The translations under genes were made by a program, and so were the position numbers. Below, piece by piece: positions 11,074-26,785 of a stretch of DNA of 41,135 nucleotides (the stretch's first letter is position 1; the number at the start of each line of letters is the position of its first letter). Location of the stretch: the NCBI GenBank assembly GCA_024681295.1, contig JAILBC010000085.1, positions 1 through 41,135 of the forward strand. The letters run 5' to 3'. The stretch comes from Bacteroidales bacterium. Lineage in GTDB: Bacteria > Bacteroidota > Bacteroidia > Bacteroidales > F082. Below the pieces are notes generated by a model. That model saw nothing but the letters and a program-made list of their open reading frames with translations, searched no databases and was not told the origin of the DNA.

Positions 11074-11094
11074 CGAAAACCTTTCATAAAACAA

Positions 11095-11124
11095 AAAGCC
11101 CGTCAAAATTGACGGGCTTTTTTT
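11095..11124. terminator. Bidirectional rho-independent terminator
   Basis: AAAGCCCGTCAA (11095-11106) pairs perfectly with TTGACGGGCTTT (11109-11120) around a 2-base loop, with T-rich tails on both strands. It can end the barrel gene on the plus strand and the long minus-strand SusCD/PNGase-like operon. Confidence 0.85.
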
Positions 11125-11200: not shown

Positions 11201-13804
11201 TTATTGTATTATTACCTTCTTGGTAACCACCTTGCCTCCAATCACATTCACAAAATAAATCCCAGGCGCCCAGTCCGAAACATCAATCGTGGCTTGGCTG
11301 TCCATCACAAAACCACGCACCTCCACGCCATAAGCGTTGTGGATGTGGACACAGAGTTTGCCCTTCTCGTAGTCGGTTTTGATGGTCATCTGATGACTTA
11401 CCGGATTCGGGGTGATGTCCACCGTAAACGGGTCTTTTTCCACGTCGGGATATTCATGAATCTCCACCAAAGTGCCATGGTTGTTGGACTGGCTCACCAC
11501 CATACCGGAGACGCGTAAAATCGGGTTGTCGGGGTTGGAGCACTGGATACAACCATTCGCGCCGTCCTGACAGCCAGGATAGTTGGGATGGCACTGGTCA
11601 AAATAAGTCGGATCGAACTGATAGAAAAGATGGGCGCCGCCTTGTGACAAGTATTCGGTAAGGTCGTAATTCCATACCAAACCCATGCTTCCCGGGCACC
11701 ATCCGCTGCGGGGATAACCCCATGTGCCGTTCTGTGGCTGGCAACTTGCAGGGTTAGGGGTACACTCACGCCATAGGTGTTGCTCGAACTTGTTTTCACC
11801 GTTGACGAAGACGTGATGGGTGGCTTCATAGAACTCAGCGGCATTACCCGTGTTGTAAGCTCCACCTGAGCTGTTGCTCCAGTTGTGACCCGTGGTAATG
11901 AGCTTCAGATGCGCCGCCTCTGTGTTCTCGGCAAACTCAAAGTCCACCTCAGGAACCGGTTGCTGGTTGGCATAGTCGCCAAAGTCATACTTGCCAAACC
12001 AGATTGGCTGAACATCGGAGTAGAGGTATTCTGGGGTTCCCTTCTGCATGTTAAAGGTCAAAATGGGATTGAAACTCCAGCTTTGCCAGATCTCATAATA
12101 GACCTCAAACTCTACCAGACCTTGCAAAATGGAAGTGTAATCCGTGACATCCATGTCATCGTCACACTCCACGCCGAACGGCGAGCAGTATCGGAACAAT
12201 TCCACCCACTCACCACGGTGGTTTTTCACCCTGACATAACCGATATGGTCGTAAGGATCGCAACTGCCGTTAAGGCAGTTGTGGTCATAATGGGCATTGA
12301 TGGCCGAAAAAGCGCCAACATGGGAAGGCAAAGCGTATTCGCCGTGTACCGTCTGGCTGGACGAAGTCACTACTAAGTCACCATTCATGGCCACCGCATC
12401 AACATTATTGAAAGTGTTGGTCACGGTGAAATGGTTATTCATCGTGGTGGTCTTGCCGCCCGACTGGGTGATGGAGGCGACCATGTCGTAATCACCGAAC
12501 GAGGTGGGCTCCCAGGTGCCAAACCAATAGCCGTTGTCGGGGTTGTTGGGATAGGCGGTCTGCAGTTGTACCGTCTGACCTCCTACCTCACAATGCACAT
12601 CCTCAAACTTGATCACGTCGCCATGCTCGATATGGGCGCTCAGCACCAGCAACATCGGCTCCAACTGGGTCATATACACATTCAGGTCATCATAAGGCCG
12701 GCGAATGGTGATCTGAGGGTTGTAGTTGCTTGGGTTGACTACCTCGAAGGTACGGTTTACCGAAGGAGCGGCTTGCCATTGGGTGCCGTCGCCAGGCTGC
12801 AAGGCACGTACCTTCACCATGCCTGTCTGACCGGTAAGGGTAACGGTGTTGCCGCTCAACGTGGCCACATCGGTGCCTTCCACAATCTCAAACTGCACGG
12901 GAAGACCTGAAGAGGCGGTGGCGTTCAAGGCAAAGGGCGCATCAAAATTGAGTTTATCTGGAATAGCCTCAAAATCAATAAATTGTGAAGCCAATCCCGC
13001 AGGAGTGTGACGAACCGTGATGTTGTCGAATCCGCCGTGAGAAGAGCTCAGAAAGAAAATGCCGTCCCACATGGCAGGATCGAAACGATCGCCGCTGCCG
13101 GGAGTGAGACCGGCGTTCAAGCCCTGGATCTCAGGCACGGGTTCAAACTCACCCGTGCAGCCGTGGTCGGCAAACAGCGACACGGCTCCGGCACCGTTAT
13201 TTGACTCCAAGTCTATCATGATCTTCCAACGGGTCCAAGCAGCCTCTGGAGTATCATACTCGAACGAAGCGGCAATTTCGTTGTTGGGCAGCACGATACC
13301 GGTGACGAAACTCGGACGGGGATCGACACCAGTGGTCACAAAATAAATACCGCCGTCTTGGGTGGGCAGAGCAGGATTGGGATGAGTGGCCTCATAACTC
13401 ATCGGAGGCAGCACCGAGCCGTCACCGTCGGCATCATAACCCACGCCGAAGCAGGTGCCCCACCAGTTGCGCATCATGTCAATCTCCACCTCGATGGTAC
13501 CTCCCGTGGAAAAGTCGAACTCAAACTCGGATGTCGACTTGTGGGTAGCTACTTCGCCATAGTTGGTGTTGGCATTGTCAAAAAACACTCCCATACTCTC
13601 GTCGGGGGTGGTGTGACCACCCCCACCAAGGTATTCGGTCTTCAGCTGTCCGCCGCCAGCACTATGGGCGCGAGCCACCCAGCCGTGCTGATCGTTCAAC
13701 GGGGCATTCTCCGTGAAGTTGTTGAAGTCGAAACTGGCCGTGGTCTGGGCATAACCCCATAACCCACAAACCATCAGGATAATAATAATTGAGATCTTTT
13801 TCAT
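11201..13804 (-). CDS. T9SS-secreted PNGase F-like protein, paralogue 1 (last in operon)
   Basis: An 867-residue exported protein; signal peptide ends WGYA with Gln20 at +1. Order of parts: an N-terminal domain of ~250 residues (FNNFTENAPLNDQHGWV start, GGFDNITVRH end) like ConA-type sandwiches; an Ig-like module (about 275-357); a second beta module (about 362-462); a PNGase F-type pair of jelly rolls (about 480-775); and a T9SS type A sorting domain (ITPNPVSHQMTIKT to VVTKKVIIQ). Residues aligning with the PNGase F active site are all present: Asp519 (CDPYD, Asp60), Glu571 (YYEIW, Glu118) and Glu657 (NAAEF, Glu206). The RSGWCPGS loop matches RAGWCPGM. Release of Asn-linked glycans is likely but unproven; R61 is replaced by His520. 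Confidence 0.87.
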   Translation of the reverse strand: MKKISIIIILMVCGLWGYAQTTASFDFNNFTENAPLNDQHGWVARAHSAGGGQLKTEYLGGGGHTTPDESMGVFFDNANTNYGEVATHKSTSEFEFDFSTGGTIEVEIDMMRNWWGTCFGVGYDADGDGSVLPPMSYEATHPNPALPTQDGGIYFVTTGVDPRPSFVTGIVLPNNEIAASFEYDTPEAAWTRWKIMIDLESNNGAGAVSLFADHGCTGEFEPVPEIQGLNAGLTPGSGDRFDPAMWDGIFFLSSSHGGFDNITVRHTPAGLASQFIDFEAIPDKLNFDAPFALNATASSGLPVQFEIVEGTDVATLSGNTVTLTGQTGMVKVRALQPGDGTQWQAAPSVNRTFEVVNPSNYNPQITIRRPYDDLNVYMTQLEPMLLVLSAHIEHGDVIKFEDVHCEVGGQTVQLQTAYPNNPDNGYWFGTWEPTSFGDYDMVASITQSGGKTTTMNNHFTVTNTFNNVDAVAMNGDLVVTSSSQTVHGEYALPSHVGAFSAINAHYDHNCLNGSCDPYDHIGYVRVKNHRGEWVELFRYCSPFGVECDDDMDVTDYTSILQGLVEFEVYYEIWQSWSFNPILTFNMQKGTPEYLYSDVQPIWFGKYDFGDYANQQPVPEVDFEFAENTEAAHLKLITTGHNWSNSSGGAYNTGNAAEFYEATHHVFVNGENKFEQHLWRECTPNPASCQPQNGTWGYPRSGWCPGSMGLVWNYDLTEYLSQGGAHLFYQFDPTYFDQCHPNYPGCQDGANGCIQCSNPDNPILRVSGMVVSQSNNHGTLVEIHEYPDVEKDPFTVDITPNPVSHQMTIKTDYEKGKLCVHIHNAYGVEVRGFVMDSQATIDVSDWAPGIYFVNVIGGKVVTKKVIIQ

Positions 13805-13826
13805 ACTCTTATATATTAATTAATTA

Positions 13827-13861
13827 CTCCTCACTCCAAACTCCTCACTCCTCACTCTTTA
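13827..13861. repeat. Heptamer repeat between PNGase-like paralogues 1 and 2
   Basis: CTCCTCA, CTCCAAA, CTCCTCA, CTCCTCA, CTCTTTA: five 7-bp units. The tract covers the stop codon of the upstream gene (13852-13854) and its last codons, so the C-terminal residues KE of that protein lie in the repeat. Confidence 0.88.
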
Positions 13862-16473
13862 ATGATTTTCTTCGTAACCATTTGTCCGCCCAGAATCTGG
13901 ACGAAATAAACACCTGCCGGAAGGTCGCTCATATCAATGGTGACCGTACCTTGCATATTGAAGCCTCTCACCTTGACGCCTTGGGCGTTGAGGATATGTA
14001 CGCCAGTGCGTCCCTTGTCATAATCCGTCGTGATGGTCAGATGGTCTTCCACCGGGTTGGGGGAGAGGGTCACATGGAACGGCTCAGCATCGACATCGGG
14101 GCGTTCGGTAACCGCTGTTACCACCACCTCGCTATTGTGGCTATAGGTCACCACCTTGCCCGAAACAATCAAGATGGGGTTGCTTGAGTCCTGACAACTG
14201 GGGCAGCTGTTCTGTCCGCTCACACAATCGGGATAGTTCGGGTGACACTCGTCAACATAATCAGGGTCGAACTCATAAAGCAGTTCCTCGATGCCGCTAG
14301 TGAGGTAATTGTCGAGGCTATAGTCCCATACCATCGGTATGCTTCCCGGGCACCATCCAGCGCGAGGATAACTCCAAGTGCCGTTTTGGGGTTGGCATCC
14401 GGCGGGATTGGGCGAACAGGTGCGCCATAAATGCTGGGTGTCGAACAAGGCGCCGTTGATCTTGATGTTGTGCGTAGCATCATAGAACTCGGCGGCATTG
14501 CCTGTGTTGTAGTTGCCGTTGGTGCCGCTACTCCAGTGGTGGCCTGAGGTCACTAAGTTGAGCTTGGCTTTCTCCACACAAGGGTCAAACTCGATGTGGC
14601 GTACTGGCACGGGACAAGGATTCGCATAATCGCCGAAATCATAGGTGCCAAACCAAATCTCGTTGAGGTCGACATAAGGATAGTCGGGGGTGCCTTTGGT
14701 GTATTCGAAGACGGCAGTGGGGCTGTAGCCTTGGCCAGTTTGGTCCCACATTTCACAATGCAATTCAAATTCAACCAGACCTTGCAGCAGGGTGGTGAAA
14801 TCGGTCACGTTAAGGTCGTCGACGCATTCCACGCCGAAGGGGGTGGTATAGCGGCACAGCTCCACCCACTCGCCTCGGTAGTTCTTCACGCGGCAGCGGC
14901 TCACATGGTCATAGGGAGGACAGCTGCCGTTCACACAGTTGTGCAGATAATGCAAGTTGATGTCGTTGAAAGCGTTGACGTGGGTGGGGAAAGCAAATTC
15001 ACCATAACTGGTGAACACTTCTTTGCTTACCACCACTTCGCCATTGAGTGCGGTAACGACCATGTCGTCATAGTTGGTGCTCACTTCAAAGGTGTTCGAT
15101 GCCGTGGTGACCTTGCCGCCTGTCTGGGTGATGCTGGCGGTCATATTGTAGGTTCCAGGACCCGAAGGTGTCCAGGTGGTGTGCCAATAGCCATTTGTGG
15201 GGTCATCGGGATAATCGGTCATCAGGATCAGTTCTTGACCATCGACAGTGCATTTCACTTCTTCAAATTTCAACACGTTGCCGTGCTCAATATAGGCACT
15301 CAACACCACTAATACGGGATTCTCAAAGTCAGGCATGTAAACTTTGGTGCCTTCGTAGGGTCGACGGATGGTGATTTCAGGGGTATAGTTCTCGGGGTCA
15401 ACCACATAGAATAAACGAGTCACCGCAGGGGCCGATTGCCATGTGGTGCCGTCGCCGGGTTGCACGGCACGGACCTTCACGCTACCTTCCTCGCCGGTAA
15501 GGGTAAGGATGTTGCCTTCCACCGTGGCGGGACCTTGGATCACCTCAAAGGTCACAGGAAGACCCGAAGTAGCAGTGGCTTGAAGGGTGATGGGAGCAGC
15601 ATAGGCCAATTGGTCGCCAATGGCTGTAAAGTTGATGAACTGCGATGCCAAGCCGCCGGGCATGTGACGTATGGTGAAGTTGTCGAAACCGCCATAACCG
15701 CTGTTGAACAGGAAGATTTTGTCCCACATGGCCGGGTCGTACTTGTTACCGCTGCCGGGAGTAAGACCTGCGTAGACACCTTGTATCTCGGGTACCGGTT
15801 CGTATTCACCGGAGTTGGGATCGTCCATTTTAAAAAGGGTCACGGCACCTGCTCCGTTATTGGCATCGAGGTCGATGCTTACCTTCCAGCGATACCAATG
15901 CTGATGGGGCTCAAACTCCAACGTGTTGGCAAAGGTGTTGTTCGGTAGCACCACACCGTTCTTAAAGTTGGTGTTGTCGGGACTCACACCAGTGGTCAGC
16001 ATGTAAATGCCGCCATCAGGCGAAGTGCTGTTGGGATCGGGAAGCGTGGGCTCGTTGTTGCCTTGAGTAGGGGGCAGTACATAGCCGTCACCATCGCCAT
16101 CGTAACCGATCCCGAAAAAGTCGCCCCACCATTCACGCCACATATCGCATTCGATCTCGATGACACCACCCGTGGAGAAGTCGAATCCGTACTCTGTCAG
16201 GCTGTGTGTGGCAATGTCGCCGAAGTTGGTTCCGGAACATTTGCTGTAAACAGCGATGGTCTCGTCGGGCGAAGTCATGTCGCGTGGCCCCAGGTAATCG
16301 GTGTAAAGGGGTTTACCGCCGTTATGGCCGTGATGGGGATGTGACACCCAGCCGTGTTGGCCGTTCAAATCTTGGTTTTCACCGTAATCGTTGAAGTCGA
16401 TGGTGACTTCGGTCTGGCCCATCGCCCAAAGGCCCACCGTCACCAATAATAAAGTGAATAGTATCTTTTTCAT
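13852..16473 (-). CDS. T9SS-secreted PNGase F-like protein, paralogue 2
   Basis: An 873-residue protein with the same architecture as its three neighbours: signal peptide ending WAMG (Gln20 at +1), N-terminal ConA-like domain, two Ig-like modules, PNGase F-type double jelly roll and T9SS type A sorting domain (LSPNPVEDHLTITT to QMVTKKIIKE). The catalytic set is complete: Asp522 (PPYD), Glu574 (LHCEMW) and Glu662 (NAAEF). It is closest to paralogue 3, sharing RRPYEGTKVYMPDFENPV and long near-identical DNA blocks, so the two come from a late duplication. CPPYDHVSRCRVKN carries an extra Cys compared with the others. 47 bases separate it from paralogue 1. Confidence 0.87.
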   Translation of the reverse strand: MKKILFTLLLVTVGLWAMGQTEVTIDFNDYGENQDLNGQHGWVSHPHHGHNGGKPLYTDYLGPRDMTSPDETIAVYSKCSGTNFGDIATHSLTEYGFDFSTGGVIEIECDMWREWWGDFFGIGYDGDGDGYVLPPTQGNNEPTLPDPNSTSPDGGIYMLTTGVSPDNTNFKNGVVLPNNTFANTLEFEPHQHWYRWKVSIDLDANNGAGAVTLFKMDDPNSGEYEPVPEIQGVYAGLTPGSGNKYDPAMWDKIFLFNSGYGGFDNFTIRHMPGGLASQFINFTAIGDQLAYAAPITLQATATSGLPVTFEVIQGPATVEGNILTLTGEEGSVKVRAVQPGDGTTWQSAPAVTRLFYVVDPENYTPEITIRRPYEGTKVYMPDFENPVLVVLSAYIEHGNVLKFEEVKCTVDGQELILMTDYPDDPTNGYWHTTWTPSGPGTYNMTASITQTGGKVTTASNTFEVSTNYDDMVVTALNGEVVVSKEVFTSYGEFAFPTHVNAFNDINLHYLHNCVNGSCPPYDHVSRCRVKNYRGEWVELCRYTTPFGVECVDDLNVTDFTTLLQGLVEFELHCEMWDQTGQGYSPTAVFEYTKGTPDYPYVDLNEIWFGTYDFGDYANPCPVPVRHIEFDPCVEKAKLNLVTSGHHWSSGTNGNYNTGNAAEFYDATHNIKINGALFDTQHLWRTCSPNPAGCQPQNGTWSYPRAGWCPGSIPMVWDYSLDNYLTSGIEELLYEFDPDYVDECHPNYPDCVSGQNSCPSCQDSSNPILIVSGKVVTYSHNSEVVVTAVTERPDVDAEPFHVTLSPNPVEDHLTITTDYDKGRTGVHILNAQGVKVRGFNMQGTVTIDMSDLPAGVYFVQILGGQMVTKKIIKE

Positions 16474-16476
16474 AAC

Positions 16477-16497
16477 TTTTATCTTTTATCTCTTATC
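16477..16497. repeat. Heptamer repeat between PNGase-like paralogues 2 and 3
   Basis: TTTTATC, TTTTATC, TCTTATC: three 7-bp units that fill nearly the whole gap and overlap the stop codon of paralogue 3 (16493-16495). Confidence 0.8.
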
Positions 16498-19144
16498 TAA
16501 TAACGACCTTCCTGCTCACCATTTCTCCACCCATCACACGAACAAAATACAATCCTGAAGGCAAGTCGCTCACATCAAGCGTAGCCGAACCATTCATGCT
16601 GAAATTGCGAACTGCCACACCTTGGGCATTCAACATAAGTACTCTCATGCTGCCTTTTTCATAATTAGTGCTGATATGCATCGTATTGCTGATGGGATTT
16701 GGGGTGATGGTCAACTCGAATGGTTCCTCATCGACATCGGGACGTTCAGTGACATCAGTCAGCAAAACATCGGTCTGATGGCTGTAGGTCACCACCTTGC
16801 CCGACACCATCAGGATGGGGTTGTTCGAATCCAAGCAGTTGATGCAGCCGTTTTGTCCAGTCACGCAGTCGGGATAGTTGGGGTGGCACTCGTCCACATA
16901 GCTGGGGTCGAACTCATACAACAGCTCAGAAATGCCACTGTTGAGGTAGTTGTCGAGGCTGTAGTTCCACACCATGCCCATGCTGCCCGGACACCAACCA
17001 GCACGAGCATAAGACCAGGTGCCATTTTGAGGCTGGCAACCCGCTGGATTGGGACTGCAGCCTCGCCACAGATGCTGGGTGTCGAACAAAGTACCGTCGA
17101 TTTTGATGTTGTGGGTGGCTTCGTAGAACTCAGCAGCATTGCCTGTGTTGTAAGCACCATTTTCAGTATCACTCCAGTGGTGGCCTGTGGTCACCAAACG
17201 GAGGTTGGCCTTCTCAACGCTGGGATCGAAGGTGATGGCATGCGGCGGGATGGGGCAGAGGTTCTCGTAGTCGCCAAAACTATAGGTGCCAAACCATATC
17301 TCGTTTACATCCACGTAAGGATAGTCGGGAGTGCCTTTGGTGTATTCGAAGATGGCCGTGGGACTATAGCCAGCACCGGTGCTTTCGTACATCTCACAAT
17401 AGAGCTCAAATTCAACAAGACCTTGAAGCACCGTGGTGAAGTCGGTCACATCGAGGTCGTCCTCGCATTCCACGCCGAACGGGGTGCAATAGCGATAAAG
17501 CTCCACCCACTCGCCACGATAGTTCTTCACACGGCCGTAACCCACATGGTCGTAAGGCTTGCAGCTGCCGTTCAAGCAATTGTGAAGGTAATGCATGTTG
17601 ATGGCATTGAAGGCATTCACATGGGTGGGAAAGGGGTATTCGCCATAGGCGGTAAACTGATCGTTGGTCATCACCACCTCGCCGTTGAGGGCTGACACGG
17701 TGATGTCGTTATAGTTGGTCGTCACCTCAAAGGTATTCGAAGCCGAAGTCACCTTGCCGCCTGTCTGCGTGATGCTGACGGTCATGTCGTAGTTGCCTTC
17801 ACCCGAAGGGGTCCAGGTGGTATACCAATAGCCATTCGTGGGGTCATTGGGATAGTCGGTTTTCAAAGTCAGTTCTTGACCGTCGACGTTACATTTCACC
17901 TCTTCGAACTTCAGCACGTCGCCATGCTCAATGTAGGCGCTCAACACAATCATCACGGGATTCTCGAAGTCAGGCATATACACCTTGGTGCCTTCGTAGG
18001 GACGGCGAATGGTGATTTCAGGCAAATAATTATCAGGATCGACCACATAGAACGAGCGTGTTACCGTAGGTGCAGCTTGCCACTGTGTACCGTCTCCAGA
18101 CTGTAAGGCGCGTATTTTCACGGTGCCTTCCTCGCCAGTAAGGGTAAGGACGTTGCCTTCGATGGTGGCAGGTCCCTGGGCCACCTCAAATGTCACGGGA
18201 AGACCCGAAGAGGCTGTCGCTTGCAGCGTGATGGGGGCAGCAGAAACCAGTTGGTCGCCGATGTCGGTAAAGTCGATGAACTGCGATGCCAGTCCGCCAG
18301 GCATGTGGCGCACAGTAAAGTTGTCAAAACCGCCCATGCCGTTGTTAAGCATGAACATGCTGTTCCACATGACAGGGTCTGACTTGTCGCCACTTCCTGG
18401 GGTAAGACCGGCATTCACGCCTTGGCACTCGGGAACAGGTTCCCATTCACCATTGTTGGGATCTTCCATCCCGTAAAGGGTAACAGCACCTGCACCACCA
18501 TTGGCATCCAAATCGATGGAGATCTTCCAACGGAACCAGCAATCCATGGTAGTGGCAGGCTGAAAATTGCATGCCATTGTATTATTGGGCAACACCGGAC
18601 CATATTGGAAATAAGGATCGGTGGGACGGTATCCCGTGGACAGCAAATAGATGCCGCCTTCGGGAGAGGTGCTGTTTGGATCTGGTATCAAGGGCTCGGT
18701 GAGGTTATGACCTGGTGCAGTGTAAAAAGGAGGAACAACAAAACCATCGCCATCGGCATCGTAGCCAATGCCAAAAAGATGGCCCCAAAGACCACGATAG
18801 ATGTCGCACTCTATCTCGATGACGCCACCTGTGGAGAAATCGAAGCCGTATTCACTGAGGCTGTGGGTGGCCACATCGCCATGAGCAGTGCCCGAAGCAT
18901 GGGAAAACACACCCATGGTTTCGTCCATAGTCGGGGATGGATCTCCTTTCCAGAAGTGGCCTATATAACCCGTGTACATAGGAATGCCACCATTGCTCGA
19001 GGTGTGCGGACGGGTAATCCATCCACCCTGTCCGTTAAGAGGTTCTTCCTCGAGATAATCATTGAAACTGAAAGCGGCCTCCGTCTGGGCACTCAATCCG
19101 ATGGCAAAAGCCATCAAAAAAAACATTAAAGAGAATCTTTTCAT
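16493..19144 (-). CDS. T9SS-secreted PNGase F-like protein, paralogue 3
   Basis: An 883-residue protein, the longest of the four. Signal peptide ends GLSA with Gln20 at +1. The N-terminal ConA-like domain has small insertions relative to the others (HFWKGDPSPTMDET near 63-76). Two Ig-like modules, the PNGase F-type core and a T9SS type A sorting domain (ITPNPISNTMHIST to EMVSRKVVIR) follow. Active-site equivalents are Asp532 (CKPYD), Glu584 (LYCEMY) and Glu672 (NAAEF). The Trp after the second acidic residue is Tyr here. Only 19 bases separate it from paralogue 2 and 15 from paralogue 4, so the genes are co-transcribed. Confidence 0.87.
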   Translation of the reverse strand: MKRFSLMFFLMAFAIGLSAQTEAAFSFNDYLEEEPLNGQGGWITRPHTSSNGGIPMYTGYIGHFWKGDPSPTMDETMGVFSHASGTAHGDVATHSLSEYGFDFSTGGVIEIECDIYRGLWGHLFGIGYDADGDGFVVPPFYTAPGHNLTEPLIPDPNSTSPEGGIYLLSTGYRPTDPYFQYGPVLPNNTMACNFQPATTMDCWFRWKISIDLDANGGAGAVTLYGMEDPNNGEWEPVPECQGVNAGLTPGSGDKSDPVMWNSMFMLNNGMGGFDNFTVRHMPGGLASQFIDFTDIGDQLVSAAPITLQATASSGLPVTFEVAQGPATIEGNVLTLTGEEGTVKIRALQSGDGTQWQAAPTVTRSFYVVDPDNYLPEITIRRPYEGTKVYMPDFENPVMIVLSAYIEHGDVLKFEEVKCNVDGQELTLKTDYPNDPTNGYWYTTWTPSGEGNYDMTVSITQTGGKVTSASNTFEVTTNYNDITVSALNGEVVMTNDQFTAYGEYPFPTHVNAFNAINMHYLHNCLNGSCKPYDHVGYGRVKNYRGEWVELYRYCTPFGVECEDDLDVTDFTTVLQGLVEFELYCEMYESTGAGYSPTAIFEYTKGTPDYPYVDVNEIWFGTYSFGDYENLCPIPPHAITFDPSVEKANLRLVTTGHHWSDTENGAYNTGNAAEFYEATHNIKIDGTLFDTQHLWRGCSPNPAGCQPQNGTWSYARAGWCPGSMGMVWNYSLDNYLNSGISELLYEFDPSYVDECHPNYPDCVTGQNGCINCLDSNNPILMVSGKVVTYSHQTDVLLTDVTERPDVDEEPFELTITPNPISNTMHISTNYEKGSMRVLMLNAQGVAVRNFSMNGSATLDVSDLPSGLYFVRVMGGEMVSRKVVIR

Positions 19145-19159
19145 ATAGATATGTATTTA

Positions 19160-21700
19160 TTAATTGATTATCAATTTTTTGGTGACCACGCTACCGCCTA
19201 GCATCTGCAATGTGTAAATACCCGGTGAAAGATGGCTTATATCAATGCTGCGTTCTCCCTCCACGGTGAAATACATCACGATTTGACCCCAAGCATTGAG
19301 CATCATCACGCTGACTGCACCCTTATCATAATCGGTACGAAGCGTGACCTGATGCTTGGCGGGGTTGGGATACAATTCAACTTGGAATGCAGGCTCCGCC
19401 ACCGTCTGATGAACACCTGTGAACACTTCTTCGTTGTTACTGTAAGTGACCACCTTGCCGGATACCCTCAATATCGGATTGTCAGGAGCGGCACACTCGG
19501 TGCAGGTCACGCCGTCCTCACAATCGGGATGGTTGGGGTGACAGAGATCCAAATAGGTGGGATCGAACTGGTAAAACAGCTCTGCATGACCGGCATTGAG
19601 ATAGGATGAAAGGTCAAAGTCCCACACCATCCCTATCGAGCCGGGACACCAGCCACTGCGAGAGTAACTCCAGGTACCATTTTGTGGCTGACATCCTGCT
19701 GGATTAGGCGCACAAGAACGCCATAGATCCTGGTCGTATTGGCTTTGGCCATTCACCAGAATATGATGGGTGGCTTCGTAAAATTCAGCGGCATTGCCAG
19801 TGTTATAGGTGTTGTTGGTACCACTGCTCCAATTATGGCCCGTGGTGGTGAGTTGCAACTTGACCCTAGAGGCTTGCTCATCGAAATGATAGTCCACCAC
19901 AGGTACAGGTTGCTGGTTGGCATAATCGCCAAAACTATAGTCGCCATACCAGATTTCATCAAGATCTACATAGAGATATTCTGGCGTCCCTTTGGTGAAC
20001 GTGAACGATAAGTTGGGATTCGACCCACTGCCGTTCCAAAGCACCATGTAGTACTCCATCTCCACCAAGCCCTGAAGCAACGAGGTGAAGTCGCTCACGT
20101 CTACATCATCGTTACATTGCTTCCCAAAAGGCGTGATGTAACGGAACAACTCCACCCACTCACCACGGTAGTTGCGAATCCGCACACCGCCGATACGGTC
20201 GTAGGTGTCGCAGTTGCCATTGACGCAGTTGTAGTCAAAATAGGCTTGGATATGGTTAAAAGCACCTACGTGTGAAGGGAAGATATATTCACCTCGGGCA
20301 CTGTGCTGGCTCGGCGTACAAACCAAGTCGCCGTGCATGGTCGCCACCTCTAAAGTGTTGTCAATCTGGTCGGTCACCTCGAATTGGGTGTTGTACGTGG
20401 TAGTCTTGCCGCCGCTTTGTGTCACGCTGACACTCAGTCCATAGTTGGTATAGCCCAAAGGCGTGAAGAAACCATAGTAATAACCGTTTTCCGGATCCTC
20501 GGGGTAGTCAGTGTGCAAGGGGATGTCCATTCCATCGACAGAAGCGGTAATCTCGGTAAACTTGATCACCTCGGGATGCTCGATGTAGGCGGAGACCACA
20601 ATCATCACAGGATGTATATCTTGCAGATAGATTTTGGTTCCCGTATAGGGCCGACGGATGGTCACTTCAGGGTCGTACAGGTCGGGATCCACCACCTCAA
20701 AAGTTTTCACCACATCGGGAGCGGGCAACCACGAGGCGTTGCCCGACTGGGTGGCTTTGAACCGCACCACACCTTCTTCACCAGTCAAAGTAAGCGTATT
20801 TCCATTGATGGTGGCAGGACCTTCTATCATCTCAAACGATACTGGAAGTCCCGATGAGGCCGTTGCCGTCAAGGTAATGGGCGCATTAAAAACCAACTGG
20901 TTCGGAATGTCCTCCATCTCGATAAGTTGGGCGTTACCGTCGGGCTGTTGGCGCACCAACAGATTGTCGAATCCTCCCGTCCCGCCTTGTGAATGGAAGA
21001 AGAGGCCGTCCCATACCTGATAATCGTTCTTGTCACCCGAACCAGGGGTCAGATGCATGTTCACATTGGTGGCTGCGGCTTGCTGAATCCACTCACCTTG
21101 ACAACCGGACTTGACAAACACCGTGACAGCACCTTCGCCATCGTAGGCCGTGAAGTCGAACGACATCTTATAGCGATTCCAGCCGCCTTCGTCGAAAGCG
21201 AACTCCACCGAGGTGCCGTTGGGCAAATGCAACCGGGCATGGCCACTGTCGCCTTGCCCCTTGCAGAACAGGTACACGCCACCATCCACGTCGTTCATGC
21301 CAGGCAAGATGTAACCATCACCGTCGCCATCAAAGCCTACCCCGAAGAAGTTGCCCCACCAGGTGCGGAGCATGTCCATCTCCAAGTCCATGATACCGCC
21401 TTCCTGGAAGCTGAAGTTGAAGTTGGCTGAGGCCTTGCGAGTGGCGGTACGACCCACGCCAGATCCTCCGTAGGGATACCAAACAGCCATACTCTCGTCA
21501 GGGGCCATATCAGAACCACAAACGTAGTCCACATCGAAATCCTGCGACGAACTGGCCGTCTGATAATGCGTCATCCAACCATCCTGACCATTGAGGTTCT
21601 GCGACCCCACCGTCAAATTGTTAAAATCATAAAGATATTCCACCTGAGCTCTCGCCCCTAGCGAAATCATTAATCCAATTATCAATAGTATCTTCTTCAT
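19160..21700 (-). CDS. T9SS-secreted PNGase F-like protein, paralogue 4, missing one active-site Glu
   Basis: An 846-residue protein and the first enzyme-like gene after susD. Signal peptide ends GARA with Gln19 at +1. The domain order equals the other three, but the N-terminal domain is shorter and more diverged. Asp501 (CDTYDR) and Glu639 (NAAEF) match the PNGase F Asp60 and Glu206, and Arg502 keeps the Arg61 equivalent that the other three have as His. The position of Glu118 is Val553 (EYYMVLW against VYYEIW). The protein may therefore have changed specificity, low activity or a binding role. A T9SS type A sorting domain (LYPNPAKHQVTLRT to VVTKKLIIN) ends it. Confidence 0.85.
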   Translation of the reverse strand: MKKILLIIGLMISLGARAQVEYLYDFNNLTVGSQNLNGQDGWMTHYQTASSSQDFDVDYVCGSDMAPDESMAVWYPYGGSGVGRTATRKASANFNFSFQEGGIMDLEMDMLRTWWGNFFGVGFDGDGDGYILPGMNDVDGGVYLFCKGQGDSGHARLHLPNGTSVEFAFDEGGWNRYKMSFDFTAYDGEGAVTVFVKSGCQGEWIQQAAATNVNMHLTPGSGDKNDYQVWDGLFFHSQGGTGGFDNLLVRQQPDGNAQLIEMEDIPNQLVFNAPITLTATASSGLPVSFEMIEGPATINGNTLTLTGEEGVVRFKATQSGNASWLPAPDVVKTFEVVDPDLYDPEVTIRRPYTGTKIYLQDIHPVMIVVSAYIEHPEVIKFTEITASVDGMDIPLHTDYPEDPENGYYYGFFTPLGYTNYGLSVSVTQSGGKTTTYNTQFEVTDQIDNTLEVATMHGDLVCTPSQHSARGEYIFPSHVGAFNHIQAYFDYNCVNGNCDTYDRIGGVRIRNYRGEWVELFRYITPFGKQCNDDVDVSDFTSLLQGLVEMEYYMVLWNGSGSNPNLSFTFTKGTPEYLYVDLDEIWYGDYSFGDYANQQPVPVVDYHFDEQASRVKLQLTTTGHNWSSGTNNTYNTGNAAEFYEATHHILVNGQSQYDQDLWRSCAPNPAGCQPQNGTWSYSRSGWCPGSIGMVWDFDLSSYLNAGHAELFYQFDPTYLDLCHPNHPDCEDGVTCTECAAPDNPILRVSGKVVTYSNNEEVFTGVHQTVAEPAFQVELYPNPAKHQVTLRTDYDKGAVSVMMLNAWGQIVMYFTVEGERSIDISHLSPGIYTLQMLGGSVVTKKLIIN

Positions 21701-21712
21701 TTGCTCTATAGT

Positions 21713-21740
21713 TTTTCACTTTTCACTTTTCACTTTCCAC
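21713..21740. repeat. Heptamer repeat between susD and PNGase-like paralogue 4
   Basis: TTTTCAC three times, then TTTCCAC. On the minus strand this is GTGGAAA/GTGAAAA, the same family as the repeats at 5972 and 6823. The last base of the tract is part of the susD stop codon (21740-21742). Confidence 0.88.
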
Positions 21741-23443
21741 TAATTTGTCATCCACCACATCGGCGTCTGCCTCGTATCCCCATGCGGCATTCTTCCTAAT
21801 TGTGTGACGTAATTTTCATAATTATATTCTACTTCTTTCTGCGGATACTCCATCCTATAGGAAGTCAACTTCTCATGGTTGGTAGTCGTAGGCGTGGCCA
21901 TGGTTCTACGTGCCAATGCCCAAGCCTCCCAAGGCTGACGGAAGAGGTTTAACCACCGTTGCTGATAGAGCATCTTCAGATAAAACTCCTGACTGCCATC
22001 GTATTCGGGATTCATCCATACGGCATAGTTCATCACATTGGCCGCCATGTTGTTGCAGCAAGCCCAAATATCCAAATTGGCAACATAATTACTGTATTGC
22101 GGATAGAAATAGGTCCAACGGCTGGTCTGATAAGGTATATGTACCCAGAAAAGGAACGACTGGTAGATGCCGGAACGGATGCTCTCGTCGGCATTCAAAG
22201 GCGGCGTGATGCCGCCTATATTCCTAATCTCAATCTCAGCCTTCATAAACAACACATCGGCGTAGGTCACCAGAATTTGCGGGACATATTTTTCATCACG
22301 AGTCAGATAATAGTTGAACGGGGAAAACAAACACGATGGTCCCTTAAAGGTATAACTGCCATCGCGCGACTGGGCGTAGGGCGACCCGCCTTCAACAGGA
22401 GTCTCGACGGTACGAATCTGGGGATAGGCCCTCCAAGCACCATCAGGGAAACTGTCGGTCTTATGGTTGGTGTCGAAAAACAGGAAGGTACGATAGTCGT
22501 AAATGCCGCTTCCATCCATGTCATCCGTCAAGGAGAGGCAGCTCCAGATGGTTTCACCCATACGGAGATGCTTATGTTCACGGAACGACCAGTTGACATC
22601 CCAGTTGGTGCCCAACGCACTCGGCCATAGACAGATACCACCGCCCTGGGCAGAACCGCCAGAGGAACTCATCGCCGTATAGATGAAACTGTAGGCATCC
22701 ACCAACAAAGGCGTCGCATAGTCTGGTTCTTTGTCGTACATGCGCAGGCCATGGCGCAAAATCAACGAGTTGGCAAACTCGGCCCAAAGCGTGTAGTTGT
22801 TGTTGAGCAGCACATCGTAAGGAAGCTTGTAATAATCATTACCGCTGGGGGTGGTCAGGGAGTCGGCATGCAAAATGTCACGCGACCAGACCAGCTCTTC
22901 GAGCAACGACTTGTAGATGCTTTCCTGGGTGTCCCACTCGGGTTTCATGGTAGCCTGCGAAGAGGCGTTCTCCCAGATACGACCAGCCTGGGTATAAGGC
23001 ATGTCTCCAAAGACGTCGGTCACCTTGAAGGTCTGGTAGGCCTTCAGCACATTCAGCTGGGCGCGCACCTTGTCGCTAATCGCTGGGTCGCCATGTTCTT
23101 CATCGTAAGCATCAAATCGCCGCTCCAGCTCTCTGATGTTGGACAGCATCAGATAGTATTCCGACCATAATTGTGAAGTACCTATTTGCGAGTTGCCCCA
23201 AGCATCGGATGTCAATGCACCAAGTTCAGTCTCAGGGTACCAAATCTCATTCTGCAAGTAGAACTGCTCGTTCATGCTCTGCTGCAACGACTTCACCACA
23301 CCGTTAAAAAGCGCTTCCGTCGTCGTTCCCGTCGGCGAGAACGGATTCTGGTTCATCTCCTCAAAATCCTTCGTACAAGAATTCATCATCAACCCCATTA
23401 AACCCATCAACCCCATTAAACCCATTTTAAATCTCTTTCTCAT
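21740..23443 (-). CDS. susD-like: SusD/RagB-like glycan- or peptide-binding lipoprotein
   Basis: A 567-residue SusD-family lipoprotein, the surface lid of a SusC transporter. The signal peptide is unusual: after MRKRFK its core is four GLM units, encoded by a 9-bp tandem repeat. The lipobox is MNSC (Cys23), followed by TKDFEE, an acidic surface-export-like signal. FEEMNQNPFSPT and VTDVFGDMPYTQAG are typical of the SusD-like family, closer to the SusD-like_2 type. It starts 18 bases after the susC stop and has a rare, good Shine-Dalgarno site (AGGAGG, 7 bases before ATG). Ligand is unknown; the PNGase-like neighbours suggest N-glycan or glycopeptide. Confidence 0.9.
   Translation of the reverse strand: MRKRFKMGLMGLMGLMGLMMNSCTKDFEEMNQNPFSPTGTTTEALFNGVVKSLQQSMNEQFYLQNEIWYPETELGALTSDAWGNSQIGTSQLWSEYYLMLSNIRELERRFDAYDEEHGDPAISDKVRAQLNVLKAYQTFKVTDVFGDMPYTQAGRIWENASSQATMKPEWDTQESIYKSLLEELVWSRDILHADSLTTPSGNDYYKLPYDVLLNNNYTLWAEFANSLILRHGLRMYDKEPDYATPLLVDAYSFIYTAMSSSGGSAQGGGICLWPSALGTNWDVNWSFREHKHLRMGETIWSCLSLTDDMDGSGIYDYRTFLFFDTNHKTDSFPDGAWRAYPQIRTVETPVEGGSPYAQSRDGSYTFKGPSCLFSPFNYYLTRDEKYVPQILVTYADVLFMKAEIEIRNIGGITPPLNADESIRSGIYQSFLFWVHIPYQTSRWTYFYPQYSNYVANLDIWACCNNMAANVMNYAVWMNPEYDGSQEFYLKMLYQQRWLNLFRQPWEAWALARRTMATPTTTNHEKLTSYRMEYPQKEVEYNYENYVTQLGRMPHGDTRQTPMWWMTN
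23387..23425. repeat. Nonamer tandem repeat inside the susD signal peptide
   Basis: Alternating CATCAACCC and CATTAAACC units, 4.3 copies. Read on the minus strand they encode GLM-GLM-GLM-GLM. The unit length of 9 keeps the frame, so copy-number change would only alter signal-peptide length. Confidence 0.9.
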
Positions 23444-23450
23444 CTTAAAT

Positions 23451-23456
23451 CCTCCT
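23451..23456 (-). promoter_or_regulatory. Shine-Dalgarno site for susD
   Basis: AGGAGG on the minus strand, 7 bases from the susD ATG. Most genes in this window have no such site, so this one may raise SusD translation relative to SusC. Confidence 0.65.
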
Positions 23457-23461
23457 AATTT

Positions 23462-26400
23462 TTACAAATTCACCTTCAACGAAACCATCACCGACCTCGT
23501 CCCTGGATATGACCCATACTCCAATCCCTGGGCGTTACCCGATCCTTGGGTGCCCTCCGGATTGATGTTGTCAGGCAAGGTCTTGTAGAAGTAGAACAGG
23601 TCGCGCCCCACCAAGGAGACGGAAGCCTGTTTAAAGAAGTTCTGCTTGTCGAGCAGCTTGCGTGGAAAGTCGTAAGTCAACGAGAGCTCACGCATCTTGA
23701 TCCAAGTATTGTCAACGATACCCGGCGTAGAGATAATCTTGCCCCATCCACCGTAGTTGGGCATGTACTTGTAAAGATAATGCACCACATGCTCGTTCTC
23801 ATAGGCCTCGCCGGTCTCGGTGTTGATGCAGTAACCTGGCAAAATCACACCGTAGTTGCCAAGCAATTCTTCGTTTTCGTAATAGGGCAGGCCGTTGCCT
23901 TCGCGCTCATAAAGCGTCTCGGGACTCTGACCGGTCTGCATGCCTACCACGTAGGAAGCGCAATAAATCTGACCGCCTAACTTGGCATCGACCAAAGCAT
24001 AGAGCGACCAGTTCTTGTAGGATGCCCGCAGATTGACACCTCCCGTGACCCAAGGCGCGCAGTTGCCCACGGGCACACGGTTATCGGTAATCAGATACTC
24101 GGTGCCGGATTCATTCAACAGGGGCATGGGGTTGCCGTCGGCATCGTAGAAAGGACCGACCACCGTGCCGTCCGACATGGTGTATTCATACAGGTAATCC
24201 CAACCGTAGATGGTACCGTACTCCTCTCCTTCTTCCACCGCAATGGCGGGACCGTTGGAACCCCAAATCTCGGAGAGGGTGTACATATTGGCACCTGACA
24301 AGTCAACAATTTTGTTCTTGTTGCGGGCGAAGTTCAAACCTACCTGAACGCCGTGATCCTTGCCGTTGGTAATGTCGTAGGTCATAATGGCCTCGATACC
24401 TTTGTTGGTGACCACACCAGTGTTGATGGTCACATTGGAGGCTCCTGAAGACGGTGCCAGCGGCGATGAGAGGATCTGGTCCCACGAGTAGATGTCGTAA
24501 TAGGTGAAGTCCATGTTGAACCGGGCACCCAACCCCAAGTCGAAACCGGCCTCAAAGGCACGCTGGCGCTGGGGTTTCAACTCCAAAGGCGGCACCGTGG
24601 TGGGCAGCGACGAGGAGAGTTGATGACCAAATGAACCCGTGGTGTAGGTGTAGTTCAACTGGTAAGGCTCGGTGTCGCTAGCCGTCTGGGCCCAGGAGCC
24701 GCGCAACTTCAGGTAGTTGACAGGACCCCAGTTCCAGTTCTTGAAAGCTGAGGTCGGCACGAAACTCAAGGTGGCAGAAGGATAGAAATAACTGTTGTTG
24801 GTGATGGGCAAGGTCGACGACCAGTCGTTGCGGCCGGTGATATCCAAGAAGGCCCAATCGCTGTAACTCAGGTTCAAGAAGGCGTACAGCGAGTTCACCT
24901 GTTTCTCCCATTTCGACTCGCCGAAGACACGCTCAGTGGCCGAGGAATAGTTGTAAATGGTGTAGAGGTTGGCGTAGGCCCAGGTACCCGACGAACCGTT
25001 GATGCCGTCGCGATAGCCGTAGTATTGCTCACCACCAACCGAGAAACGGAAGTTCAGTTTCGAGCCAAACACCTTGTCTTTATAGGCGGTCAACAGGAAG
25101 TCCATGTCGCGAGTCAAGGAACTCGACTTGCTCTTATAGTAGTAGCCGCCCGCCATGCCATCGAGGGTGGTGGGCTTGTTCTTGGTGATATAGTTGTCGT
25201 TGGTCCAGTCCAAGGCAACCTTTCCCGTGGCAGTAAGCCAAGGGGTTACATCATAAAGCAGGCGTACCGAACCGAACATCTTGTCGCGGTCGAGCGTGGT
25301 GTTGTGGTTGTAAAACGTCCAGAAAGTGCTGCTGTAGATGTACATGTAGGGATAGCCCTCGAACTGGTTCATGGTGCCATCGGGGTTCTCGTACGAATTC
25401 ACCTCAAGGCCTTTCCAGCTACGGGGCCAGCTGTAGAGCAGACCCTTGTTGAAGTTGCTGTTCGACTCACCAATCTCAGGGGAGTTCAAGCGATAATAAT
25501 CCAGATAGGTGAAAGCCACATCGACCTTGATCTTCTCTGAGACGTTGATCAACGAACCCACGTTGACGGTAGTCTGCCGCAGGTTGCAGTTGTCAATGAT
25601 GGCGTCGGTCCTCGAGTCGGTGAACGATACACGGATACTGCCGAAGTCACCGGCATTCTGTAACGAGATGTTGTTGTTCAAGGTATGGCCGTTATGGTAC
25701 AGCAGGCTGAGGTTGTCGGGCTGGGGCGAATAGTCGCGAACCACGCCGTCCCACCATAACACGCTCTCGCCATTCATCGCGGGACCCCAGCTCTGGGCAC
25801 CACCGTAATAACCGAAGGTGGTGTTGGTGGGCTCACCTGCTGGACCGTTATCCACACTGTAGATGCCAGGATATTCGTACACCTGGTTGCCGTTCTCGTC
25901 GAACATCCCGTCGATAGGGGTGAGGGTCGGCGTATGGAAGGTGATGGGTCCGCCGGCGCCGTATTTGTTTTGCACGGAACGGTAGAGGTAAGGCTGCGTA
26001 ATCTTGTAAGTGGCGGAATAGCTGATGCCCAAACCACGCTGTTTGCTACCTTTCTTGGTGGTGATGAGCACCACGCCGTTACCGCCGCGTGAGCCGTACA
26101 GAGCTGCTGCGGTGGGTCCTTTCAAGATGTCGATGTTCTCGATATCTTCCTGGTTGATGTTGTTCAGCGCAGTACCCCAGTCGCGTCCGCCGCTCCATTC
26201 GGTCACACCGCCTTCGTTGGTCATCGGCACACCGTCCACCACAATCAGAGGCTGATTGTCGCCAAAAATGCTGTTGTTACCACGGATGGTGATACGCGAC
26301 GAGCCGCCGTCGACGCCAGTAGGATTGATGATCTGCACACCCGCTGAGCGACCACTGAGAGAACTGATCACACTGCCTGAACCTGATTTGGCAATAAGGT

Positions 26401-26785
26401 CGCCGTCAATCTCTTCAGTGGCGTAACCCAACTCTCGTTTCTGACGTTTGATGCCCAAGGCGGTTACGACGACGTCATCAAGCATCTGGGCGTCCTGATC
26501 CAAAGTGACATTGATTTTGTTGCGACCGTTCACTTTGATTTCTTGGGAGACGAAGCCCACAAAACGGAACACTAGCGTTCCTTTAGAATCCACATCGATC
26601 ACATAATTGCCGTCGATGTCGGTGACAGTACCTTCACTGCTGCCTTTGATGGTGACGGTGACACCGGGCATTCCAAGCCCGTCATCACTCGAAATCACCT
26701 TTCCGGTTACTGTGATGTTCTGGGCCAACAAACCCAATGGAAACATCAATACAGTAAAGAAAAATAGTAAAATTCTTTTATTCAT
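23462..26785 (-). CDS. susC-like: SusC/RagA-like TonB-dependent outer-membrane transporter
   Basis: An 1107-residue SusC-family TonB-dependent transporter and first gene of the operon. Signal peptide ends GLLA with Gln at +1. A carboxypeptidase-regulatory-like beta domain (about 24-100, VTGKVISSDDGLGMPGVTV) is followed by the linker DDVVVTALGIKRQKRELGYA and the plug (VSSLSGRSAGVQI-like region, RGNNSI, PLIVVDGVPM, GPTAAALYGSRGGNGVVLITT). The rest is the 22-strand barrel, ending GTRSVMVSLKVNL. With SusD it would import the product of the surface PNGase-like enzymes, energised by TonB. No regulator such as a hybrid two-component system or ECF sigma/anti-sigma pair lies next to it. Confidence 0.93.
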   Translation of the reverse strand: MNKRILLFFFTVLMFPLGLLAQNITVTGKVISSDDGLGMPGVTVTIKGSSEGTVTDIDGNYVIDVDSKGTLVFRFVGFVSQEIKVNGRNKINVTLDQDAQMLDDVVVTALGIKRQKRELGYATEEIDGDLIAKSGSGSVISSLSGRSAGVQIINPTGVDGGSSRITIRGNNSIFGDNQPLIVVDGVPMTNEGGVTEWSGGRDWGTALNNINQEDIENIDILKGPTAAALYGSRGGNGVVLITTKKGSKQRGLGISYSATYKITQPYLYRSVQNKYGAGGPITFHTPTLTPIDGMFDENGNQVYEYPGIYSVDNGPAGEPTNTTFGYYGGAQSWGPAMNGESVLWWDGVVRDYSPQPDNLSLLYHNGHTLNNNISLQNAGDFGSIRVSFTDSRTDAIIDNCNLRQTTVNVGSLINVSEKIKVDVAFTYLDYYRLNSPEIGESNSNFNKGLLYSWPRSWKGLEVNSYENPDGTMNQFEGYPYMYIYSSTFWTFYNHNTTLDRDKMFGSVRLLYDVTPWLTATGKVALDWTNDNYITKNKPTTLDGMAGGYYYKSKSSSLTRDMDFLLTAYKDKVFGSKLNFRFSVGGEQYYGYRDGINGSSGTWAYANLYTIYNYSSATERVFGESKWEKQVNSLYAFLNLSYSDWAFLDITGRNDWSSTLPITNNSYFYPSATLSFVPTSAFKNWNWGPVNYLKLRGSWAQTASDTEPYQLNYTYTTGSFGHQLSSSLPTTVPPLELKPQRQRAFEAGFDLGLGARFNMDFTYYDIYSWDQILSSPLAPSSGASNVTINTGVVTNKGIEAIMTYDITNGKDHGVQVGLNFARNKNKIVDLSGANMYTLSEIWGSNGPAIAVEEGEEYGTIYGWDYLYEYTMSDGTVVGPFYDADGNPMPLLNESGTEYLITDNRVPVGNCAPWVTGGVNLRASYKNWSLYALVDAKLGGQIYCASYVVGMQTGQSPETLYEREGNGLPYYENEELLGNYGVILPGYCINTETGEAYENEHVVHYLYKYMPNYGGWGKIISTPGIVDNTWIKMRELSLTYDFPRKLLDKQNFFKQASVSLVGRDLFYFYKTLPDNINPEGTQGSGNAQGLEYGSYPGTRSVMVSLKVNL

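What the first reader, a model, noticed from the sequence alone, without database searches (positions are those of the whole stretch)
11201..26785. SusC/SusD operon carrying four tandem T9SS-secreted PNGase F-like proteins: a candidate N-glycoprotein foraging system
Seen: six minus-strand genes with gaps of 15-47 bases, a promoter box before susC and a terminator after the last gene. All four downstream proteins carry the PNGase F double jelly-roll signature (YDH/R near Asp60, NAAEF near Glu206, GWCPG loop) and a T9SS type A sorting domain. Known: PNGase F cleaves the glycan-Asn amide bond; SusCD imports oligosaccharides or peptides. Inference: the four proteins split the work over glycan or protein types, and SusCD imports freed N-glycans or peptides. 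It is unusual that there are four copies and no glycoside hydrolase, sulfatase or regulator in the operon.
Basis: partly seen in the sequence, partly recalled or inferred. Interest (0 to 1): 0.82.

Follow-up and report, generated by a model that had tools for sequence, protein, structure and literature searches.

The report
Four-enzyme N-glycan release operon
A bacterium whose relatives live in the guts of plant-eating animals carries one operon that codes for four related exported enzymes, predicted to cut sugar chains off glycoproteins, next to what appears to be its only SusC/SusD import pair, which suggests a lineage specialised in feeding on glycoproteins.

Summary
Window 11201-26785 (minus strand) is a six-gene operon: susC, susD and four tandem proteins of 846-883 aa, gaps 15-47 bases. 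All four pass Pfam's cut-offs for the PNGase F C-terminal domain and the T9SS sorting domain. Models of two of them match PNGase F best among solved structures; Asp60 and Glu206 are kept in all four.

Already known: PNGase F-family enzymes with T9SS tails and accessory modules are published (PNGaseDo, PNGaseL), and PNGase genes beside susC/susD have been noted in Bacteroides.

Added here: (1) the SusC-SusD-PNGase cassette is widespread (17 of 20 order-level loci fetched); (2) position 118, Glu in PNGase F where it blocks core alpha1,3-fucose, varies through the family and is Val in P4, the copy next to susD; (3) the window SusC is the only one over cut-off in its genome, and in 39 genomes of the genus a strong SusC signature occurs in 27 of 28 with long PNGases and 0 of 11 without.

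Best reading: surface N-glycan release coupled to SusCD import in an N-glycoprotein specialist. Activity, cargo and division of labour are untested. New variant of a known kind.

The parts
23462..26785 (-). susC: TonB-dependent outer-membrane transporter, 1107 aa; the only SusC over cut-off in the genome assembly
   Evidence: TIGR04056 555.9 bits, TIGR04057 60 bits; single match over cut-off in own genome
21740..23443 (-). susD: substrate-capture lipoprotein, 567 aa; lipobox-like LMMNSC near the N-terminus (by eye)
   Evidence: PF12771 111.6 bits, PF12741 85.1 bits; the only PF12771 protein found in the genome
19160..21700 (-). P4: PNGase F-like protein with T9SS tail, 846 aa, first after susD; pocket residues Y500 D501 R502 V553 W555 W624 E639 R681 (PNGase F 59, 60, 61, 118, 120, 191, 206, 248)
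   Evidence: PF09113 53.4 bits; model pLDDT 81.1, best match 1pnf E 2.7e-19; residues
16493..19144 (-). P3: same domain order, 883 aa; pocket Y531 D532 H533 E584 Y586 W657 E672 R714; not modelled
   Evidence: PF09113 39.7 bits; residues
13852..16473 (-). P2: same domain order, 873 aa; pocket Y521 D522 H523 E574 W576 W647 E662 R704; not modelled
   Evidence: PF09113 32.9 bits; residues
11201..13804 (-). P1: PNGase F-like protein, 867 aa: signal peptide, lectin-like beta-sandwich about 20-270 (inferred), Ig-like stretch about 275-465 (inferred), PNGase F module about 470-775, T9SS type A sorting domain about 797-867; pocket Y518 D519 H520 E571 W573 W642 E657 R699
   Evidence: PF09113 57.8 bits; model pLDDT 86.7, best match 1pnf E 2.6e-18, TM 0.79 by target length; limits read from the strands and; residues
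26838..26845 (-). candidate promoter -7 box TATATTTG, 52 bases before the susC ATG
11093..11122 (-). terminator-like hairpin, 13 pairs, then a T run

Best explanation
A glycoprotein-feeding operon. Four PNGase F-type amidases are exported by the type IX system and probably held on the cell surface. Each has N-terminal beta-sandwich modules, the first of them probably lectin-like, that may bring glycoprotein to the active site. The PNGase module cuts the bond between the innermost GlcNAc and asparagine with the residues equal to Asp60 and Glu206. The freed N-glycan (or a small glycopeptide) is caught by SusD and taken in by SusC with TonB energy, then trimmed by enzymes coded elsewhere, such as the three GH92 proteins. 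Shown by computation: operon anatomy, fold of two of the four, conserved catalytic residues, sorting domain, a T9SS SprA gene, recurring linkage of SusCD to such enzymes. Inferred: enzyme activity, surface location, role of the accessory modules, cargo of SusCD, order of steps, division of labour.
For: Homology: profile E 1.9e-42 to PNGase F and 5.5e-6 to zebrafish Ngly2, a proven acid PNGase in which the residues equal to Asp60 and Glu206 are essential (PMC12753239, passages). Fold: PNGase F is the first solved match of both models. Only 22 of 256 compared PNGase F positions are identical in at least 99% of both family sets; they include Asp60, Glu206, Arg248 and the cysteines 51, 56, 231, 252. 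Asp60, Glu206, Arg248: 115 of 115 members of the genus and near kin and 26 of 26 more distant ones. Linkage: SusC and SusD beside the enzyme on the same strand in 17 of 20 order-level loci fetched. Co-occurrence in the genus: strong SusC signature in 27 of 28 genomes with long PNGases and 0 of 11 without (Fisher p 7e-9, not corrected for kinship). Own genome: SprA, three GH92, no PF00704 GH18 match. All four copies: dN/dS 0.064-0.081 against G023 orthologs. Lectin-like module: legume-lectin matches of the P1 model (TM about 0.5 by target length) and Laminin_G_3 at the N-terminus of 5 of 10 other members scanned.
Against: No activity data. Of 94 distinct arrays only 34 hold both SusC and SusD within 250 bases; 58 hold PNGases alone (some at contig ends). 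Glu118, conserved in PNGase F type I, is Val in P4. The PF09112 half-domain model fails. The stretch with Trp191 and the loop before Glu206 is predicted with pLDDT under 50 in both models, and no coordinates were at hand to superpose active sites. The P4 model shows no legume lectin among its 50 listed matches. No GH130; two of the three GH92 genes lie among housekeeping genes, none in the operon. SusD's sequence does not tell glycan from peptide binding.
Confidence: 0.72

Rival explanations
1. Protein feeding: the enzymes strip N-glycans to open protein to peptidases, and SusCD imports peptides or glycopeptides. The glycans are a by-product.
For: M28 peptidases lie by PNGases: one directly upstream, same strand, of the Q118-type PNGases in 10 loci (L041 and L076 are by length the same contig; the T9SS tail was tested in L041 only); the genome's type II PNGase lies near a T9SS-tailed M28 and a GH27; an M28 gene also lies beside the window operon on the other strand. 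The operon holds no glycosidase.
Against: The window M28 is not in the operon; three GH92 proteins (a family of alpha-mannosidases) suggest use of N-glycan mannose; sequence kinship of SusD does not decide.
Confidence: 0.35
2. Four copies are dosage or history, not specialisation: tandem duplicates with the same specificity.
For: P1 and P2 are identical at the eight pocket positions compared and P2 and P3 are 80% identical in the PNGase module; copy number per array varies from 1 to 4.
Against: P4, P1 and P2/P3 fall in separate clades, each with members in several genomes; 21 positions of the PNGase module differ between the P4, P3 and P1 clades while each is at least 85% uniform, among them 63, 120, 213 and 249; all four are under purifying selection.
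Confidence: 0.4
3. Some copies, P4 above all, are binding or scaffold proteins with little catalysis.
For: Val replaces Glu118 in P4, while its nearest orthologs keep Glu.
Against: Asp60, Glu206 and Arg248 are kept in P4; position 118 takes many residues in the wider family and is Gly in type II and group 2 PNGases, which are active (PMC9522356, section and passages).
Confidence: 0.15

Closest known systems
PNGaseDo and PNGaseL (PMC12381499; sections 3.2, 3.3 and 3.4 read; passages)
   Same: Bacteroidota PNGase F-superfamily enzymes with C-terminal T9SS signal; PNGaseDo is said to have three accessory beta-sheet modules, which resembles the layout of P1; the paper's aromatic-Asp-positive/aromatic motif fits Y-D-H/R. 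All six enzymes of that study were expressed and assayed; PNGaseL cut every substrate, the other five were narrower.
   Different: Most of those genes were called orphans; in what I read no SusCD cassette or tandem array is described. PNGaseDo's own assay result is in a figure that I did not see, and I could not compare its sequence with P1-P4.
PNGase F, type I (1pnf, 3pms)
   Same: Fold; Asp60, Glu206, Arg248, Trp191; cysteines 51/56 and 231/252 (pairing recalled).
   Different: 24-25% identity; Trp59 is Tyr, Arg61 is His in P1-P3, Cys204 and Cys208 are lost, large N-terminal modules and a T9SS tail are added.
Bacteroides group 1 and 2 PNGases (PMC9522356; section 5 read; passages)
   Same: Same superfamily; some lie in loci with susC/D, and the B. 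sartorii group 2 gene has only a susC/D pair as neighbour.
   Different: One or two PNGase genes per species; the two enzymes tested there were predicted periplasmic; T9SS is not mentioned; group 1 has Asp and group 2 Gly at position 118.
Capnocytophaga canimorsus Gpd complex (PMC3128124; abstract)
   Same: TonB-dependent uptake coupled to removal of N-glycans from glycoproteins at the surface.
   Different: The enzyme is an endo-beta-N-acetylglucosaminidase lipoprotein (GH18 class recalled), not a PNGase.
Zebrafish Ngly2 (9lwg; PMC12753239, passages)
   Same: Distant PNGase module; His next to the catalytic Asp, as in P1-P3.
   Different: Animal lysosomal enzyme with other accessory domains, active under acid conditions only.

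Membership tests
PNGase F superfamily (PF09112/PF09113) | C-terminal domain over the curated cut-off | tested here: met
   All four, 32.9-57.8 bits, cut-off 25
PNGase F superfamily (PF09112/PF09113) | N-terminal domain over the curated cut-off | tested here: not met
   Seen only in P4, 12.2 bits against 22.4. Alignments with PNGase F cover this half and the fold matches, so I keep the superfamily call, and read this as divergence from the half-domain model.
PNGase F superfamily (PF09112/PF09113) | Double jelly-roll fold like 1pnf | tested here: met
   P1 E 2.6e-18, TM 0.79; P4 E 2.7e-19, TM 0.80, by target length; P2 and P3 not modelled
PNGase F superfamily (PF09112/PF09113) | Catalytic Asp60 and Glu206 | tested here: met
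   By alignment: 4 of 4 window copies, 115 of 115 near members, 26 of 26 distant members; geometry not superposed
PNGase F superfamily (PF09112/PF09113) | N-glycan release activity | not testable with these tools
   needs an assay
Type I PNGase (does not accept core alpha1,3-fucose) | Glu (or Asp) at position 118 | tested here: inconclusive
   Met by P1-P3, not by P4 (Val); openness of the loop not modelled
T9SS type A cargo | C-terminal sorting domain, and a T9SS in the genome | tested here: met
   TIGR04183 38.8-43.1 bits, cut-off 23; SprA in a 2489-aa frame; other T9SS parts not searched
SusCD polysaccharide utilisation locus | susC/susD pair | tested here: met
SusCD polysaccharide utilisation locus | Local glycoside hydrolases and regulator | tested here: not met
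   None in the operon; flanking genes match M28, LRR, LUD, RpiB and MORN families or none over cut-off
Endoglycosidase (GH18) deglycosylation complex of Gpd type | GH18 endoglycosidase | tested here: not met
   No PF00704 match in own genome; GH85 and divergent GH18 not searched

The most novel reading that the evidence does not exclude
This uncultured Bacteroidales genus keeps as a rule a single SusCD pair per genome and uses it only for N-glycoprotein: SusCD and the T9SS PNGases are gained and lost as one unit, which makes these bacteria N-glycoprotein specialists in a phylum known for many polysaccharide loci, with paralog pockets (positions 61, 118, 120) tuned to different N-glycan cores or pH.
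Probability: 0.45. Interest if true: 0.72.

Novelty: new variant of a known kind. Interest (0 to 1): 0.52.

Why it matters
Bacteroidota are usually described as carrying many SusCD pairs for many glycans (recalled). A lineage that appears to hold one pair, tied to up to four exported PNGases, is a clean case for asking what SusCD carries when N-glycans are cut off by an amidase rather than an endoglycosidase, and why the two tested Bacteroides PNGases were predicted periplasmic while these carry an export tail. The family also offers 141 sequences (115, 26) in which position 118, the core-fucose gate of PNGase F, varies: a ready set for finding PNGases with new specificity or pH range.

Tried and rejected
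Compensation of the Glu118-to-Val change in P4 by a second acidic residue, as proposed in print for type II (Glu418): P4 alone has Asp587 near that place, by a rough alignment of mine, and across the 115 members acidic residues there do not go with loss of Glu118. Dropped.

SusD sequence as a guide to cargo: solved relatives are a mixture at E 1.1e-12 or weaker. Not informative. A paper search for PF12771 and peptides gave nothing direct (listing only).

Sigma-70-type promoter scan: no better than shuffles. Viral fold library with the P4 model: low-TM matches to modular and tail-like proteins. No use.

Literature: the listings (5 to 15 titles shown of up to 8,747 papers each) showed no title on a SusCD-T9SS PNGase tandem array. 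The library lacks most subscription papers and all bioRxiv preprints, so this is weak evidence of absence.
Full report
What is there. The six minus-strand genes are as described. susC is a full-length SusC (TIGR04056 555.9 bits). susD belongs to PF12771/PF12741. The four downstream proteins share one domain order. The PNGase F module and the T9SS type A tail rest on profile matches. The modules before them are inferred: the P1 model is all beta-strands there, its fold matches include legume lectins (eight of the 50 rows listed, TM 0.46-0.56 by target length), whose place in the model the output does not give, and a Laminin_G_3 (concanavalin A-like) domain lies at the N-terminus of 5 of 10 other family members scanned. 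The P4 model lists no legume lectin among its 50 rows. Pairwise identity of the window copies in the PNGase module is 59-62%, except P2/P3 at 80%.

Are they PNGases? Sequence: P1 against PNGase F E 2.1e-28; seven-row profile E 1.9e-42. Fold: both models, P1 (pLDDT 86.7) and P4 (81.1), find PNGase F first among 350,542 chains. P2 and P3 were not modelled. The stretch from the Trp191 equivalent towards Glu206 is poorly predicted (P1 642-648 and 650-652, P4 625-637, pLDDT under 50), and I had no coordinates to superpose active sites, so the active-site claim rests on alignment. In one search, 150 hits over 400 bits gave 115 distinct members of the genus and near kin, after dropping the window fragments L002-L005, one short open frame, and copies identical over the last 600 residues; Asp60, Glu206, Trp191 and Arg248 are kept in 115 of 115. 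Many of these loci were found by patterns that hold the NAAEF or LQG-VE motif, and only the best 80 of 448 were returned, so Glu206 is there partly by choice of sample; Asp60 is in neither pattern. The 26 distant members (one cut by a contig start) lie in 20 loci that I chose from the stronger hits of a profile search: Asp60, Glu206 and Arg248 in 26 of 26; Trp191 is not aligned in three of them. That both catalytic residues are essential in Ngly2 and PNGase F is from PMC12753239 (passages).

Pocket variation. Position 118 (Glu in PNGase F, where it blocks core alpha1,3-fucose; Gly in type II and group 2; Asp in Bacteroides group 1; PMC9522356, section 5) is E 75, Q 30, D 6, V 3, T 1 in the 115 and scattered in the 26. 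It follows the tree: 8 changes, shuffled mean 36.1 (quick tree). Position 61 is R 67, H 48; Ngly2 has His there. In the window, P1 and P2 are H61/E118/W120, P3 H61/E118/Y120, P4 R61/V118/W120. V118 of P4 is not shared by its nearest orthologs, which have E. Between the P4, P3 and P1 clades 21 positions of the module are set differently.

Cassette. In the genus and near kin, 94 distinct arrays: 34 hold SusC and SusD with one to four PNGases, 2 SusD only, 58 PNGases alone; 16 hold two or more PNGases in tandem; four in tandem are seen only in the window and in G023 (neighbours are on one strand with gaps under 250 bases; some arrays lie at contig ends). Of the 20 order-level loci, 17 have SusC and SusD on the same strand beside the enzyme (gaps up to 314 bases): 15 with the order SusC-SusD-PNGase and two (L157, L171) with the enzyme upstream. 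L153 (a short contig), L154 and L170 have none. These SusCs are 41-62% and SusDs 35-51% identical to the window's.

One SusCD pair. In the own genome (2.7 Mb, 174 contigs, 91% complete) TIGR04057 has one match and TIGR04056 one match over cut-off, the window gene; twelve further TIGR04056 matches reach at most 82 bits against a cut-off of 368. PF12771 finds only the window SusD; other SusD families were not searched genome-wide. For the genus I put together 36 genomes and G136, G236, G321 (one search scored two candidates per genome). Of 28 with long PNGases, 27 have a SusC signature at E 1e-15 or better, 24 of them with exactly one match and three (G025, G027, G033) with two; the exception, G014, is 85% complete in 460 contigs. 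Of 11 without long PNGases none has such a match; five have weak ones at 2.7e-6 to 7.9e-4 (G001, G006, G032, G136, G321) and six none. With genomes of at least 90% completeness: 14 of 14 and 0 of 7 (tables). Related species are not independent, so the p-values (7e-9 and 9e-6) overstate the case. Genomes of other families with the long PNGase carry 2-18 SusC matches, so the near-single pair is a trait of this genus; in G038, of another family, the SusC genes seen in L049 and L180 lie in runs with long PNGases.

Rest of the pathway. The genome has SprA of the T9SS and three GH92 proteins, two among housekeeping genes and one of these with an F5/8-type C domain; no PF00704 GH18 and no GH130 match. 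A fifth PNGase is of type II by kinship: first matches are the B. massiliensis enzyme 7zgn and PNGF-II at E 1e-129, with the PNGase_F-II N-terminal domain. Near it lie a GH27-like melibiase, a T9SS-tailed M28 peptidase and a protein with a T9SS-like tail by eye. So the cell has a type II PNGase besides the four long ones.

Source. Named relatives are Bacteroidales assemblies; many titles name rumen or other gut sites or faeces of cattle, water buffalo, roe deer, goat, yak and horse, and some Candidatus Limimorpha or Lentimicrobiaceae. Plant, protozoal or salivary glycoproteins are possible foods; this is inference.

Selection. Window against G023 orthologs (L056): dN/dS 0.064, 0.081, 0.074 and 0.067 for P1-P4 and 0.057 for SusD, with dS 1.35-2.05, near saturation, so rough.

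Verdict. An N-glycan release and uptake operon, well supported by anatomy and conservation, of a kind whose enzymes are already known in print. New here are the widespread SusCD link, the fourfold exported array, the free variation at the fucose gate, and the apparent single SusCD pair per genome.

Noticed in passing
window 33894-35063 (-): Card1-like protein with CARF and endonuclease domains (PF09002 73.1 bits, PF23400 46.9 bits), a type III CRISPR ancillary effector family (recalled), next to metabolic genes.
   Followed up: no
window 6813-9416 (+): 867-aa leucine-rich repeat protein with a match to the EndoS LRR domain (PF23952, 46 bits).
   Followed up: no
window 9498-10496 (+): M28 peptidase on the strand facing the operon; kin at 59-80% identity lie near PNGase genes in many loci of the genus.
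   Followed up: partly
L041 10991-12517, and L072, L073, L074, L075, L076, L077, L081, L117, L120: M28 peptidase (T9SS-tailed in L041, the one scanned) directly upstream of Q118-type PNGases: a second recurring pair for glycoprotein breakdown.
   Followed up: partly
L133 6393-12296: Own genome: type II PNGase near a GH27-like melibiase and a T9SS-tailed M28 peptidase.
   Followed up: partly
window 26895-27989 (+): 364-aa zinc-ribbon-like protein divergent from susC, no family over its cut-off.
   Followed up: no
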